From Streptomyces glomeratus (GTDB lineage Bacteria; Actinomycetota; Actinomycetes; Streptomycetales; Streptomycetaceae): a stretch of 64,000 nucleotides of DNA. Position numbers and translations under genes: made by a program. The notes under the pieces are model-generated. The model worked only from the letters and a program-made list of their open reading frames with translations. It ran no database searches and was not told the DNA's origin. The stretch lies in the NCBI RefSeq assembly GCF_021462825.1, contig NZ_JAKEEB010000027.1, forward strand, positions 1 to 64,000, in the 5' to 3' direction. Shown here one piece after another: positions 15,165 to 63,858 of this stretch; the first letter of the stretch is position 1; every line of letters starts with the position of its first letter.

Positions 15165-15587
15165 TCAGCCGGTGAAGAAGGGCACGGGTTCGCCCTGCTC
15201 GGCGTAGGTCGTGAGCTGGGCGAACTTCGTCGCCCAGCCGTACGTGAAGTCCCGGTAGGCGTCGTCGACGGCGGGGAATCCGCGGTGGGTGAAGCGCAGG
15301 GTGACGCCGCCCTCCGGGCGGGGCAGCACCTCATAGCTCTGGACGGTGCCGGTCCAGGGGCCGTTCTCGCCGGCCAGGACGAGCCGCCTGCCGGGCTCCG
15401 CCTCCGTGATGCGCAGTCGCCACGGCTCCGGCACACCGGGGAAGCGCAGTTCGTGCACGCCGTCCACGCCCTCCTCGGCGGTGGCGGTCGTGGTGAACCA
15501 GCCGTAGATGCCCTCGGCCGTGGAGATCGCCGTGTACACGGTGTGCGGGTCGGCCTCGATGTGCAGCTGCATCGCGATGTCAGCCAT
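15165..15587 (-). CDS. SRPBCC/AHSA1-family ligand-binding protein
   Basis: 140 residues. Helix-grip fold of the AHSA1 type: MADIAMQLHIEADPHTVYTAISTAEGIYGWFTT at the start, RLRITEAEPGRRLVLAGENG in the middle and AYRDFTYGWATKFAQLTTYAEQGEP at the end. Such proteins bind small hydrophobic ligands and often pair with ArsR regulators. It is divergent from the ArsR gene across a 77-90 base region that carries the operator at 15618-15633. ATG 15587 is preferred over an upstream in-frame start at 15617, which would fall in the operator. Confidence 0.87.
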   Translation of the reverse strand: MADIAMQLHIEADPHTVYTAISTAEGIYGWFTTTATAEEGVDGVHELRFPGVPEPWRLRITEAEPGRRLVLAGENGPWTGTVQSYEVLPRPEGGVTLRFTHRGFPAVDDAYRDFTYGWATKFAQLTTYAEQGEPVPFFTG

Positions 15588-15617
15588 GACGTGTGTTCCT
15601 TCCGTCGTTGCGATCAA

Positions 15618-15633
15618 TTTAGTGAAGACTAAA
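15618..15633. promoter_or_regulatory. ArsR operator: TTTAGT-N4-ACTAAA
   Basis: A perfect 6-bp inverted repeat with a 4-base spacer lies between the divergent SRPBCC and ArsR genes. The right arm is part of CTAAAATGACG (15629-15639), repeated exactly at 15669-15679 over the ArsR start codon. The layout suggests the ArsR protein binds both copies and represses both directions. Confidence 0.7.
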
Positions 15634-15673
15634 ATGACGAAGCGCTCGATGGCAAGCTGTAGCGGTGGCTAAA

Positions 15674-16021
15674 ATGACGTCCATGGATGCGGTGCGAGCG
15701 GTCGCGGAACCCAGACGGCGCGAGATCCTGCGCCTGGTCTGGGACGCGGAGCTGTCCGCGGGCGAGATCGCCGAGCGGTTCGACGTCACCTTCGGGGCCG
15801 TCTCGCAGCACCTCAAGGTGCTGCGCGATTCCGGCCTGGTTACGCTGCGCCAGGAAGGCAAGAAGCGCTTCTACCGTGCCGACCGTGAGGCCATGGGCCC
15901 ACTGGCCGACTATCTGCAGTCCATGTGGGCCGCGAAGCTGGACACACTGGCCGAGCTGGCGGAGGCGGCCGAGCGGGTGGAGCGTGGGGGGCCCGGACAC
16001 TCCGAAGGGGCGAGCCCTTGA
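15674..16021 (+). CDS. ArsR/SmtB-family transcriptional repressor (SRPBCC-associated type)
   Basis: 115 residues from ATG 15674; GTG 15665 and ATG 15683 are also in frame and none has a clear ribosome binding site. Winged helix: MDAVRAVAEPRRREILRLVW, LSAGEIAERFDVTFGAVSQHLKVLRDSGLV, LRQEGKKRFYRADREAMGPL. No metal-binding cysteine motif is present, so it belongs to the ArsR group that partners SRPBCC proteins and not to the metal sensors. It overlaps the next gene by 4 bases (TTGA) and is divergent from another SRPBCC gene. Confidence 0.88.
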   Translation: MTSMDAVRAVAEPRRREILRLVWDAELSAGEIAERFDVTFGAVSQHLKVLRDSGLVTLRQEGKKRFYRADREAMGPLADYLQSMWAAKLDTLAELAEAAERVERGGPGHSEGASP

Positions 16022-58239: not shown

Positions 58240-58635
58240 CGAGACCCATTGCCGCCCGGCTTTCGAAAGGGACCGAACTGCCGGTCGAATTTTCCGGGTC
58301 GAGTGCGCCGGAGGGCGCGGAATTAGGCGCCCGGACGCTGTTGACTGACTTTCTGTCAATACAGCCCCGCCGCACCGGAAACGGAAAGCGAGGGACTCTC
58401 TTGTTCGCCCTCGGCGACCTATGGAAAAGTGTCACCGTCGGCGCGCGGATCATTCTCCTCACCGCTGCGCATCCGGCGTTGTCGTGCGCCGTCCGCTGCA
58501 ACCGGTGGTGTCTCGGGCGGTTGTTCGACACGTCGGAAAATTCCGATGGACACGTCCTGCGTGCAGCCGGCCGGGCGGTGCCTTCATTGGTACGGACTAA
58601 AGAAGTGTCTGCGTGGGTTCTGGAGGAACGTGAAC
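58240..58635. other. intergenic region upstream of the sigma/lectin fusion gene
   Basis: 396 bases without a gene-like ORF, clearly AT-richer than the flanks. It contains TTGAC-N9-GTCAA (58341-58359), a short inverted repeat, and several AT-rich patches that probably hold promoters. A long leader of this kind suggests complex control of the downstream gene. Confidence 0.5.
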
Positions 58636-60600
58636 GTGAAAGACGGGAGTCGGCGTAATTTGCCGAACTCCCTCCCGTCGTACGGCGCGACGGACGAACA
58701 GCTCGCCGCCGAGCTGAAGAAGTCCGCGGGCAAGAGGCCCGTGCACCATCCGGTCGGCGAGTTGCTCGGCCGTCACTGGGAGGCCGCCTTCTCCTACGCC
58801 CGGCTGTGCACCGACGGGGCTCATCCCGCCGGAATGCTCACCACGGCAGCTTTCACCCGGCTCTTCGAGGACTCCGCGCGGCAGGGCGGACCCACGGCCG
58901 CCTGGCGGCCCCAATTGCTCGTCGCCGTCCGCCGTCTCGCGGCGGAATGGGACACCGACCACCGACGCGCCCTCCTGCACCGCGCACTGCGCTCCGACCC
59001 CGGCGGCGGCGAGCGCGCCGCGGCACGGCTGTCGCCCCCCGAGACCCGGCGGCTCGTGTCGCTTGCCTTCCAGCGGCTCCCCGAACCAGCCCGGTGTCTG
59101 CTGTGGCACGCCGAGGTCGAACGGGAGGAACCCGCTCTCCCCGCCGCCCTGTTGGGCATCGATCCCGCAGACGCCGTGGTACGGCTGGACCGGGCGCGCG
59201 AGCAGATACGTGAGGCGTGCCTGGACGTCCACCGCGAGTCCGCCCCCGACGAGGAGTGCCGCCGCTACGCCCGGCTGCTGGACGTCTCCCTGCGCCGGTC
59301 GGACGACATCCTCGATCCCGATCTGCACCGCCACATGGACGGCTGCACGCACTGCCACCACGCCGCTGAGCAACTGGAGGGCTTCCACCGGCGCCTCCCG
59401 CTGCTCCTGGCGGAGGGTGTGCTCGGCTGGGGCGCGCAGGCCTACCTGGAGACCAAGACCACGCCCGTCGAGGTGACCGAGGCGCCGGCGGCCCCCGTGA
59501 AGCCCCTCGTCGGAGGCGAGCCGCTGATCGACCCGGCCGACGCACGCCCGCGGGCGACGCCCGTGGAGGTCACGGCTCCCAACGACCCGGCCGGCCCCGG
59601 CCATCGGGACACCACCGCGACGGACGCCAGGGGCGGCGGCCGCTCCGCGAGCGCCGTGCCGACCGCGGCGGGCCCGCGCCCCACCGCCGCGCACAAGGCC
59701 CCCCGCCGCTCGCCGCAGCGTCGCCAACTCGCCTTCGCCGCGGCCGCGGTGGGTGCGCTCGTCCTCGTCCCGCTGGCCGTGTGGTCCGGGACCCGGTCGG
59801 CTGGGGGCGCCGCCACCGGCACGGGCACACCGTCCGGTGAGCCCAGCCCGGCAGGGACGAGCCACTCCGGATCGCCCTCCCTGATCGGCACCGCCGCCGA
59901 TGTGCCCACCGGCGCCTTCGAGGGCTGGCTGCGCAACGAGGACAGCGGCCTGTGCATCGGCCTCGACAAGGACAAGGCGGTCGTCGGCGCCGAGGCCCTG
60001 CTCATCTCCTGCGCGCCCACGCCCACCCAGCAGTGGGCGTACGGCAGCGACGGGCTGCTGCGCAGCGCCGCCGCGCCCGGGCTGTGCCTCGACTCCCACC
60101 TCGGCTACTCGGTGCAACTCGCCGCCTGCGCAGGGGCCTCGGAGCCCGGGGCGGAGAACGTCCGTTACGACTTCACCCTCCAGGGCGCGCTCGTCCCGCG
60201 CTGGAACCAGGACCTGGCCCTGACCCCCGCCTCCTCCGACCGGGACGCGGGACTCGTACTCAAGCCGCGGACGCGCGGCCACACCCAGCGCTGGCATGCG
60301 GACACCTCGAACGCGCCGCGGATGGCGACGGCCGACGGGGGAGCCGAGGAGTTGTCGAGGGCTCCGGCGGCCCGCGGCGCCGGGCCGTCCCGCTCGGCGG
60401 CCCCGGCGAGCGGGAGCGCGCCGGGGCCGGCTCCCACCTGGTCGACGCGGGCGCGGCCCACGGACGGGCCGTCCTCCCCGAAGGCGGGCGGCTGTCCGGG
60501 CCGGTACTGTCCGCCGGGCGACCAAGACGCCCAGGACGGGCACAGTGACTGGGGCGGACACGAGGGCCGGGGTCCGTCCGGGGCTCGCGGCGGCCACTGA
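58636..60600 (+). CDS. membrane-spanning fusion: sigma-like helices, anti-sigma-type zinc finger, transmembrane helix and extracellular ricin-type lectin
   Basis: 654 residues from GTG 58636 (GGAGG upstream; GTG 58630 also in frame). The first 200 residues are helical and resemble a degenerate ECF sigma region 2/4 (HHPVGELLGRHWEAAFSYARLCTDG, LAFQRLPEPARCLLWHAEVE, ALLGIDPADAVVRLDRAREQIREACLDVHRE). A zinc-finger motif follows, HRHMDGCTHCHHAAEQL (H...CxxC, about residue 233), as in anti-sigma factors. After a Pro/Thr linker comes one membrane helix (RRQLAFAAAAVGALVLVPLAVWSG, about 362-385), then a ricin-B domain (WLRNEDSGLCIGLDKD, CAPTPTQQWAYGSDGLL, about 428-555) and a disordered tail. I infer an outside lectin sensing glycans with a cytosolic regulatory head. 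Confidence 0.75.
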   Translation: MKDGSRRNLPNSLPSYGATDEQLAAELKKSAGKRPVHHPVGELLGRHWEAAFSYARLCTDGAHPAGMLTTAAFTRLFEDSARQGGPTAAWRPQLLVAVRRLAAEWDTDHRRALLHRALRSDPGGGERAAARLSPPETRRLVSLAFQRLPEPARCLLWHAEVEREEPALPAALLGIDPADAVVRLDRAREQIREACLDVHRESAPDEECRRYARLLDVSLRRSDDILDPDLHRHMDGCTHCHHAAEQLEGFHRRLPLLLAEGVLGWGAQAYLETKTTPVEVTEAPAAPVKPLVGGEPLIDPADARPRATPVEVTAPNDPAGPGHRDTTATDARGGGRSASAVPTAAGPRPTAAHKAPRRSPQRRQLAFAAAAVGALVLVPLAVWSGTRSAGGAATGTGTPSGEPSPAGTSHSGSPSLIGTAADVPTGAFEGWLRNEDSGLCIGLDKDKAVVGAEALLISCAPTPTQQWAYGSDGLLRSAAAPGLCLDSHLGYSVQLAACAGASEPGAENVRYDFTLQGALVPRWNQDLALTPASSDRDAGLVLKPRTRGHTQRWHADTSNAPRMATADGGAEELSRAPAARGAGPSRSAAPASGSAPGPAPTWSTRARPTDGPSSPKAGGCPGRYCPPGDQDAQDGHSDWGGHEGRGPSGARGGH

Positions 60601-63231: not shown

Positions 63232-63477
63232 ATGCCAGCCCTCAACGTGGAGTTCAGTGACCGGGAGCTCGAGGACCTGCGACAGATCGCCAAGGAACGC
63301 GGTACGTCGATGAAGGCCCTGGTGCGTGAGGCCGCCGCGGCCGACATCGCGCGGCACCGGGCCCTTCAGGAGGGCGCCGAGGCCTTCCGCCGGTTCTTCG
63401 CCGGGCACGCGGACGAGTTCGCTGCGGCCTTCCCCGAGGACGAGCCGCACACCAAGGACGAGGGGCGGGGCGCCTGA
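63232..63477 (+). CDS. ribbon-helix-helix (CopG/Arc-like) antitoxin
   Basis: 81 residues: MPALNVEFSDRELEDLRQIAKERGTSMKALVREAAAADIARHRALQEG is a ribbon-helix-helix DNA-binding start, and the tail (FRRFFAGHADEFAAAFPEDEPHTKDEGRGA) is the flexible part that wraps the toxin. It lies 3 bases before the Doc-like toxin gene, the usual order of a toxin-antitoxin operon, and would also repress the promoter. Confidence 0.87.
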   Translation: MPALNVEFSDRELEDLRQIAKERGTSMKALVREAAAADIARHRALQEGAEAFRRFFAGHADEFAAAFPEDEPHTKDEGRGA

Positions 63478-63480
63478 CCG

Positions 63481-63858
63481 ATGGCCTCCGTCCTCCATAT
63501 CGACGTGCCCTGGCTGCTCCAGCGCCATGAAGAGGTCCTTCCGGACCAGCCGGTGATCAACGACTTCTCCGCGCTGGTCGCGGCGGTCGCCCGGCACCGT
63601 GTCGACCCGCCCCGCCTCGGTGTGAACTCCGACCCGGCCTGGCGCGCGGCAGCCCTGTTGCACACGCTGGCGCTGCTCAAGCCGCTGCCGTCGGCGAACG
63701 CACGCTTCGCCTGTGCCACGGCGGTCGCGTACATGTTCGTCAGCGGCGTCGGCATCGACCCGCCGTACGGCGCCCTGGTCGACCTCACGCGCGACCTCAT
63801 CTCCGGAAAGACCGACGTCTACAAGGCGGCGGACCGGCTGCGGTCCTGGCAGATCTGA
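63481..63858 (+). CDS. Doc/Fic-family toxin-like protein with degenerate catalytic motif
   Basis: 125 residues: VLHIDVPWLLQRHEEVLPDQPVINDFSALVAAVARHRVD, then LLHTLALLKPLPSANARFACATAVAYMFVSG and DLISGKTDVYKAADRLRSW. The fold and the antitoxin next door fit the Doc (death on curing) group. The Fic motif HPFxDGNKR reads KPLPSANAR here, so the catalytic His and the Asp are missing; only the Asn and Arg remain. It could be an inactive relic, a binding protein, or an enzyme with another mechanism. ATG 63481 lies 3 bases after the antitoxin stop. Confidence 0.75.
   Translation: MASVLHIDVPWLLQRHEEVLPDQPVINDFSALVAAVARHRVDPPRLGVNSDPAWRAAALLHTLALLKPLPSANARFACATAVAYMFVSGVGIDPPYGALVDLTRDLISGKTDVYKAADRLRSWQI

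What the first reader, a model, noticed from the sequence alone, without database searches (positions are those of the whole stretch)
58636..60600. Sigma-like, zinc-finger, membrane and lectin domains in one protein
A degenerate ECF-sigma-like head, an anti-sigma-type HxxxCxxC finger, one membrane helix and an outside ricin lectin combine sensing and gene-control modules in a single chain. It could report extracellular glycans without a separate sigma/anti-sigma pair. The unusually long AT-rich leader and the neighbouring SpoIIE phosphatase add to the case.
Basis: inference. Interest (0 to 1): 0.65.

Follow-up and report, generated by a model that had tools for sequence, protein, structure and literature searches.

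The report
Sigma-like membrane lectin protein in Streptomyces
A Streptomyces membrane protein carries a sugar-binding lectin outside the cell and, inside, a domain descended from a transcription-starting sigma factor joined to its own inhibitor; its relatives form a large, carefully preserved family that has lost the usual signature of a working sigma factor.

Summary
The gene (58630/58636-60600, +) encodes an N-inside protein: sigma2-like and sigma4-like domains, an HxxxCxxC anti-sigma-type finger, one TM helix and a ricin lectin. The head's predicted structure matches ECF sigma factors. The architecture is that of the published ECF52/ECF53 fusions (SCO4117), for which glycan-triggered release is already proposed. 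New here: the protein belongs to a separate clade, seen only in its own genus in my sample, nested among canonical fusions and supported by an outgroup. It has lost the sigma2 D-L-x-x-E signature (A-G-M-L-T-T-A-A-F in nearly all orthologues) and, on average, the positive charge of the -35 recognition helix. Yet sigma2 changes least of four domains compared (63 of 64 relatives). The genome's four copies are missing from its sigma-model matches. Paralogues swap the outer domain (ricin, CBM2, LamG). In 3 of 3 genomes examined, the gene and a nearby paralogue flank SpoIIE and GH9 (and GH2) glycosidase genes. Most likely a glycan sensor derived from fused sigma/anti-sigma proteins; whether its output is true initiation or sigma mimicry is unresolved, and I lean to mimicry. 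A link to contractile injection systems was tested and rejected.

The parts
58240..58629 (+). leader between the flavoprotein gene and the start; G+C about 0.63
   Evidence: part of it aligns with the upstream stretch of L010-L013
58622..58626 (+). GGAGG ribosome-binding site
   Evidence: GGAGG also in L010-L013
58630..60600 (+). whole gene, 656 aa, GTG start (alternative 58636) to stop
58732..59013 (+). sigma2-like domain, residues 35-128
   Evidence: VIA Z 8.0, rmsd 3.4, 79 aligned to SigH; lowest pN of four domains in 63 of 64 relatives
58828..58854 (+). A-G-M-L-T-T-A-A-F (residues 67-75) in place of the sigma2 D-L-x-x-E-x-F signature
   Evidence: A67, G68, L70, T72, A73, F75 in 81 of 81; M69 in 74, I69 in 7
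59038..59241 (+). sigma4-like domain, residues 137-204
   Evidence: (Z 7.0, rmsd 3.0, 68 aligned to SigL region 4)
59155..59199 (+). turn and recognition helix of the sigma4-like HTH (residues 176-190), net charge 0
59242..59457 (+). ZAS-like (anti-sigma) segment, residues 205-276, ending in the conserved LAExVLGWGAxAY stretch
   Evidence: NCBIfam antisigmaE in 32 of 81 at E up to 1; fold alone inconclusive
59332..59355 (+). H-x3-C-x2-C finger (residues 235-242)
   Evidence: (80 of 80 relatives)
59458..59727 (+). variable linker ending in the basic RRSPQRRQ stretch
59728..59784 (+). transmembrane helix LAFAAAAVGALVLVPLAVW (residues 367-385)
   Evidence: hydrophobic segment in 69 of 80 relatives, 8 of the 11 misses being frames cut by a contig end
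59785..59922 (+). Ser/Thr/Pro/Gly-rich outer spacer
59923..60294 (+). ricin-type beta-trefoil lectin (residues 432-555)
   Evidence: QxW in the alpha repeat in 41 and the gamma repeat in 41 of 42 lectins that my pattern found (of 80 relatives), beta 0 of 42
60295..60597 (+). poorly conserved low-complexity C-terminal tail

Best explanation
A membrane-tethered glycan sensor descended from ECF52/ECF53-like fused sigma/anti-sigma proteins. Outside the membrane the ricin lectin binds a carbohydrate (inferred from the domain). Inside, the sigma2/sigma4-like head is packed against its own zinc-finger anti-sigma segment (inferred from the order of domains). Ligand binding then exposes or proteolytically frees the head (inferred by analogy with SCO4117). 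Because the clade has lost the D-L-x-x-E signature and the positive recognition helix while sigma2 stays strongly conserved, I think the head more likely acts by binding a protein (sigma mimicry, for example titrating another anti-sigma factor, or altered docking on RNA polymerase) than by ordinary promoter recognition. Shown: architecture, fold relation, motif loss, selection. Inferred: ligand, release, output.
For: Fold and profile relation to ECF sigma factors. Same domain order in relatives with recognisable sigma2 plus ricin (plasmid loci L090, L091, L095; L160, L161, L163). One branch separates 43 motif-lost from 20 motif-bearing heads (97/99), still 87/93 when the motif and recognition-helix columns and four rows are dropped; with six ordinary ECF sigma factors of this genome as outgroup the motif-lost rows form a clade (42 rows, 99/98) nested among the canonical ones. 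sigma2 has lower pN than the lectin in 64 of 64 relatives. Net charge of residues 176-190: mean +1.9 (range +1 to +3) in 20 canonical, -1.0 (range -3 to +3) in 43. The outer domain is swapped among sugar-binding types: ricin, CBM_2, LamG. GH9 and GH2 genes between paralogues A and B in 3 of 3 genomes (the GH2 match in one is a fragment).
Against: No ligand, partner or DNA target is known. sigma2 of an ECF52-type pair is about equally constrained (dN/dS 0.069, one pair), so selection does not separate mimicry from real sigma function. Most canonical members of this group already lack the Q of D-L-x-Q-E, so the core-binding surface may simply have drifted. By median dN/dS over 64 relatives sigma2 (0.288) is barely below sigma4 (0.321), and in the three more distant pairs sigma4 is lower. 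In paralogue B sigma2 is not the most constrained part. The own genome's A-B interval holds no GH match. The window's own charge at 176-190 is 0, not negative.
Confidence: 0.45

Rival explanations
1. A working, divergent ECF sigma factor of the ECF52/53 kind: glycan binding triggers proteolysis, and the freed head binds RNA polymerase and drives a regulon, perhaps glycoside hydrolases.
For: Architecture and fold; published model for ECF52/53 (passages); sigma2 constraint like an ECF52-type pair; GH9 and GH2 genes between the A and B paralogues in 3 of 3 genomes.
Against: D-L-x-x-E lost in the whole clade, no curated sigma2 match in the window head, the genome's four copies absent from its 78 TIGR02937 matches; recognition helix no longer positive on average.
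Confidence: 0.33
2. Mainly a surface lectin or adhesin; the cytoplasmic sigma-derived head is a structural anchor or leftover without a signalling role.
For: Lectin with QxW in two of three repeats; no curated sigma model hit for the window head.
Against: sigma2 is better conserved than the lectin in 64 of 64 relatives; zinc finger kept in 80 of 80.
Confidence: 0.12
3. An effector or adaptor of a Streptomyces contractile injection system, like Sco4256-4258 or CisA.
For: Sco4257/4258 also have one TM helix and a ricin domain (passages); Sco4242/CisA has a Cys-rich, possibly Zn-binding stretch before its TM (passages).
Against: Own genome has no sheath match (PF04984); strong head matches are no commoner in sheath-bearing genomes (11 of 18 against 28 of 43); the Sco4256 N-domain is described as chaperone-like and the CisA N-terminus as largely unstructured. 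Direct sequence comparison was not possible.
Confidence: 0.03

Closest known systems
ECF52 sigma factors (SCO4117, S. coelicolor)
   Same: sigma2-sigma4, zinc finger, TM, low-complexity spacer, outside carbohydrate-binding domain (PMC5826349, passages); heads align over their length with NPCBM-type relatives
   Different: SCO4117 is reported with a TIGR02937 sigma domain and an NPCBM-type (smart00776) module; here D-L-x-x-E is lost and the module is ricin.
ECF53 and canonical sigma-ZAS-TM-ricin proteins (e.g. loci L090, L091, L095, L160, L161, L163)
   Same: same domain order including ricin
   Different: all six match Pfam Sigma70_r2, and four of six Sigma70_r4_2, above cut-off; the window protein does not. 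I could not compare with the ECF53 reference itself
PhyR-type sigma mimics (Alphaproteobacteria)
   Same: sigma-like fold with degenerate polymerase and promoter contacts (as described in PMC8103513, passages)
   Different: PhyR has a receiver domain and acts on NepR; here ZAS, TM and lectin are fused instead
IutY (ECF243) fused sigma/anti-sigma, Pseudomonas putida
   Same: sigma fused to a membrane anti-sigma; released by proteolysis (PMC8999054, passages)
   Different: iron-starvation surface signalling in a Gram-negative, working sigma; no lectin is mentioned in the passages I saw

Membership tests
ECF sigma factor | sigma2 and sigma4 folds | tested here: met
   Foldseek prob 1.00 to SigE, SigW and SigL region 4 (best E 0.018, none at or below 0.001); VIA Z 7-8
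ECF sigma factor | recognised by curated sigma models (PF04542, PF08281, TIGR02937) | tested here: not met
   window protein none in Pfam, only weak sub-cut-off NCBIfam sigma matches; not among 78 own-genome TIGR02937 matches, 150 of 164 candidates scored; weak matches in relatives
ECF sigma factor | acidic D-L-x-x-E signature of region 2.2 (recalled) | tested here: not met
   M-L-T-T-A; M69 in 74 and I69 in 7 of 81; A73 in 81 of 81
ECF sigma factor | binds core RNA polymerase and initiates at promoters | not testable with these tools
   bench assay needed
ECF52 | sigma-derived head + zinc finger + TM + low-complexity spacer + carbohydrate-binding module | tested here: met
   compared with the description in PMC5826349
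ECF52 | groups with NPCBM-bearing (SCO4117-type) proteins in a tree | tested here: not met
   separate clade
ECF53 | clusters with the published ECF53 reference sequences | not tested
   reference not available; one classification paper not held
ZAS-type anti-sigma domain | H-x3-C-x2-C finger after the sigma part | tested here: met
   80 of 80; NCBIfam antisigmaE in 32 of 81, zf-HC2 in 3 of 81 (E up to 1)
ZAS-type anti-sigma domain | fold matches solved ZAS domains | tested here: inconclusive
   model pLDDT 75.8, pTM 0.54, no meaningful PDB match
PhyR sigma mimic | receiver domain coupled to the sigma-like domain | tested here: not met
   no receiver domain in the Pfam scan at E up to 1
Streptomyces contractile injection system effector (Sco4256-4258) | found with an injection-system cluster | tested here: not met
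   no sheath match in own genome; no association over 61 genomes

The most novel reading that the evidence does not exclude
A Streptomyces clade of membrane-bound sigma mimics: fused sigma/anti-sigma glycan receptors that gave up promoter recognition and now signal by protein binding, for example by titrating anti-sigma factors or occupying polymerase when sugars are sensed. It would be a Gram-positive, membrane-anchored counterpart of PhyR, often with several copies per genome differing in the sugar module.
Probability: 0.3. Interest if true: 0.78.

Novelty: new variant of a known kind. Interest (0 to 1): 0.52.

Why it matters
Fused sigma/anti-sigma/carbohydrate-binding proteins are a predicted but barely tested way of turning an outside glycan into gene control; of ECF52 the paper I saw calls SCO4117 the first member characterised. 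Here is a multi-copy clade that sigma-model searches of this genome miss and that keeps the sigma2 fold under strong selection without the usual signature. A simple pull-down or transcription assay could tell sigma mimicry from divergent initiation. The GH2/GH9 neighbours in related genomes make polysaccharide use in Streptomyces a concrete place to look.

Tried and rejected
Contractile injection system link: PMC10066040 (passages) describes TM-ricin effectors Sco4256-4258, and PMC10020575 (passages) a TM protein with a possible Zn-binding stretch and a sugar-related end, Sco4242/CisA. Rejected: own genome has no PF04984 match, Fisher p 0.78 over 61 genomes, N-domains described as chaperone-like or largely unstructured. 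I had no Sco425x sequence, so homology itself was not tested.

An ECF52 (NPCBM) orthologue as a further paralogue in this genome: PF08305 gives 0 matches and the head profile only the four known copies at E up to 1e-10, so it appears to be missing here.

SpoIIE as functional partner: near the gene in 36 of 80 flanks but convergent in the window; no mechanism found. Leader as a special feature: relatives look the same.

ZAS fold alone: model too weak, no PDB match. Foldseek E-values for the head are modest (0.018 at best, none at or below 0.001). VIA notes that Z under about 13 for helical folds can be a common arrangement, and its 50 rows include some that are not sigma factors (a designed helical repeat, NarL, VpsT, WhiB7 complex). 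I rely on 48 of the 50 Foldseek rows shown being sigma factors or the sigma-like PhyR, together with the sequence profiles.

Without the motif columns (and four rows) the split drops from 97/99 to 87/93. Among the 43 motif-lost rows one has E at the D position (V_L166), and five keep E at the E position: four of the paralogue-C type and V_L175. Paralogue B does not share the sigma2-most-conserved pattern. The charge comparison counts related sequences many times, so its p value means little.

The 63 tree rows were chosen by me from what I had fetched: 13 of the 80 related-loci hits, the 11 proteins, 29 of the 30 (L148 dropped as incomplete), the four own copies and six of the seven plasmid loci then held (L096 left out); L127 and L128 left out. 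One search used 59 of them plus six ECF sigma factors picked by me. Selection was measured on 7 of 80 loci and on 64 of 80 (16 dropped as cut, short or long).

Searches of print for this motif-lost clade. Neither their listings nor the passages I read describe it. Of the classification papers, Casas-Pastor 2021 is not held; Huang 2015 and Pinto and Mascher 2016 were not looked up, so an account there is not excluded.

Full report
What is there. The gene runs from GTG 58630 (or 58636, same frame) to the stop at 60600 on the + strand, with GGAGG at 58622-58626. Close orthologues L010-L013 keep the GTG at 58630. The 656-residue product has a ricin-type lectin at 432-555 (Pfam E 1.5e-13), one hydrophobic helix at 367-385 preceded by a basic stretch (lectin outside by the positive-inside rule, an inference), and an H-x3-C-x2-C finger at 235-242. 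No Pfam sigma model matches the window protein; NCBIfam gives only weak sigma matches at 132-202 (E 0.0019 and 0.017, far below the cut-offs).

The head is sigma-derived. The finger is present in 80 of 80 and a hydrophobic segment in 69 of 80 (8 of the 11 misses are frames cut by a contig end, three are not). Scanned one by one at E up to 1, 64 of 81 heads match TIGR02937 sigma70-ECF, 28 of 81 match Sigma70_r4_2 (best 7.6e-8) and 32 of 81 match the NCBIfam antisigmaE family. AlphaFold on the 81-row alignment gave pLDDT 82.1 and pTM 0.77. Foldseek against the PDB lists ECF sigma factors first (SigE, SigW, SigH, SigL), probability 0.92-1.00 in the first ten rows, but E no better than 0.018. The second aligner places sigma2 at about 35-128 (Z 8.0, rmsd 3.4, 79 aligned to SigH) and sigma4 at about 137-204 (Z 7.0, rmsd 3.0, 68 aligned to SigL region 4). 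The anti-sigma segment folded alone gave no useful match.

Known kind. Proteins with sigma, zinc finger, TM and an outside carbohydrate-binding domain are the published ECF52 and ECF53 groups. From passages of PMC5826349 and PMC8999054: SCO4117 is the member studied, and activation by glycan binding and proteolysis is proposed, not shown. PMC10766802 (passage) says experimental validation of the predicted sugar domains is lacking. The NPCBM-bearing type was read in eight genomes (five; L172, L173 and L174); Pfam confirms NPCBM, sigma2 and finger for the one that I scanned, L173.

What is different here. The window protein and its three paralogues in the same genome (one 3.4 kb beyond the end of the window gene, past SpoIIE, one on contig C26, one on C1) are not among the 78 TIGR02937 matches of this genome at E up to 0.001 (150 of 164 candidates scored); Pfam gives at most a sub-cut-off sigma4 hit (E 0.029, paralogue C). 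At the place of the sigma2 signature D-L-x-x-E-x-F they have other residues. In the 81 orthologous heads this stretch is nearly fixed: A67, G68, L70, T72, A73, F75, T76 and R77 in 81 of 81, T71 in 80, M69 in 74 and I69 in 7. Aligning 63 heads, 20 carry D and E and 43 do not: 37 lack acid at both places, five keep the second and one has E at the first. In a maximum-likelihood tree the 43 and the 20 lie on the two sides of one branch (97/99). With the motif and recognition-helix columns removed and four long or odd rows dropped the split stays but weaker (87/93, 88% of bootstrap trees). With six ordinary ECF sigma factors of the own genome as outgroup, the 42 motif-lost rows form one clade (99/98, 100% of bootstrap trees) and the 17 canonical rows do not: the signature was most simply lost once, inside a canonical stock. 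The net charge of residues 176-190 (turn and recognition helix) averages +1.9 (+1 to +3) in the 20 and -1.0 (-3 to +3) in the 43; the window protein has 0.

Selection. Between the window gene and L010-L013 the sigma2 part has dN/dS 0.08-0.13 against 0.35-0.45 for the lectin and 0.58-0.84 for the linker; in three more distant pairs sigma2 is 0.29-0.32 and sigma4 somewhat lower, 0.20-0.27. Over 64 of 80 relatives sigma2 has a lower pN than the lectin in 64 and the lowest pN of four domains in 63; median dN/dS is 0.288 for sigma2, 0.321 for sigma4, 0.531 for the finger segment and 0.616 for the lectin. An ECF52-type pair shows a sigma2 value of 0.069 (one pair). In paralogue B (three pairs) the finger segment and sigma4 are the most constrained and sigma2 less so (0.28-0.43). 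So the head is not decaying, but the constraint alone does not say whether it still acts as a sigma factor.

Spread and neighbours. In 61 genomes of the genus 60 have at least one head match at E up to 1e-10, 1 to 8 per genome; part of these are the canonical type. Across 197 genomes of the class, 66 have a match at E up to 1e-15, 50 of them outside the genus (only up to 12 candidates scored per genome; no other genus of the family has a listed match). None outside scores better than 2.6e-37. The 15 outside-genus loci returned all keep an acidic pair at the signature (15 of 15), and so do the Nonomuraea and the two Arthrobacter plasmid hits (L096, L206, L094). Motif-lost members were therefore seen only in the own genus in this sample; 35 of the 50 outside genomes were not read. 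The outer domain varies within the clade: ricin, CBM_2 (own paralogue C, L146, L156) and LamG (L092, L093, L165). Two family members lie 11-22 kb apart in ten of the other genomes by the places. In the three of these intervals that I took, SpoIIE, a GH2 and a GH9 cellulase gene lie between A and B (Pfam in L137; tblastn in L138 and L141; the GH2 match in L138 is only a 107-residue fragment). In the own genome the interval shows SpoIIE and two small genes and no GH match. SpoIIE is found in 36 of 80 flanks and the upstream flavoprotein in 46 of 80 (many flanks are too short to tell).

Mechanism. Shown: architecture, fold relation, loss of signature, selection, module swapping. Inferred: the lectin senses a glycan; the finger segment holds the head; ligand exposes or frees the head. 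For the output I weigh three readings. A protein-binding sigma mimic fits the lost signature and charge; a passage on PhyR in PMC8103513 describes such degeneration in a sigma mimic. A divergent but working sigma factor fits the conserved sigma2 and the glycosidase neighbours. A passive anchor is hard to square with the well-conserved head. I lean to the first, at 0.45 against 0.33 for the second; the added outgroup test did not move these odds.

Rejected lead. PMC10066040 and PMC10020575 describe TM-ricin and Zn-TM-sugar proteins of Streptomyces contractile injection systems (passages). The own genome has no sheath match and strong head matches do not track sheath genes (11 of 18 against 28 of 43, p 0.78); the CisA N-terminus is described as largely unstructured (PMC12237407, passages).

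Verdict. A real feature, correctly read in its parts; a new variant (motif-lost clade) of a known kind (fused sigma/anti-sigma/carbohydrate-binding proteins). The D-L-x-x-E signature as a core-binding feature is recalled from the sigma literature, and its role was not tested here.

Noticed in passing
L007 6026-7729 (own contig C27 64025-65728), just past the window: A second protein of the same family (paralogue B, 567 aa, ricin) on the same strand beyond SpoIIE.
   Followed up: yes
L137 7303-12793; L138; L141: GH2 and GH9 (cellulase with CBM4_9 in L137) genes between paralogues A and B in three related genomes (GH2 only a fragment in L138); no such match in the own genome's interval.
   Followed up: partly
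own genome (G000): The ECF52-type (NPCBM) gene that I read in eight other genomes of the genus appears to be missing.
   Followed up: partly
L127 952-2697: Own-genome protein with canonical sigma, an HxxxCxxC finger, a TM and, by eye, a secreted CAP-like domain.
   Followed up: no
L128 (own contig C2, match at 15302-15709, minus strand): Another degenerate sigma-like protein with an HxxxCxxC finger, TM and, by eye, an Ig/BACON-like outer domain; weak TIGR02937 match (E 1.3e-4).
   Followed up: no
window 63247-63477 and 63481-63858: Two small adjacent genes that look by eye like an antitoxin and a Fic/Doc-like toxin; the second has no Pfam match; both found in only 1 of 80 relatives' flanks (L081).
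   Followed up: partly
L092 2884-4794 and L093 2905-4740: Motif-lost heads with a LamG outer domain on Streptomyces plasmids, each just downstream of an MHYT-domain gene.
   Followed up: no
L009 5733-8401 (own contig C1): Paralogue D lies beside a sigma-B/F-type sigma gene on the same strand and near histidine-use genes (identified by eye).
   Followed up: no
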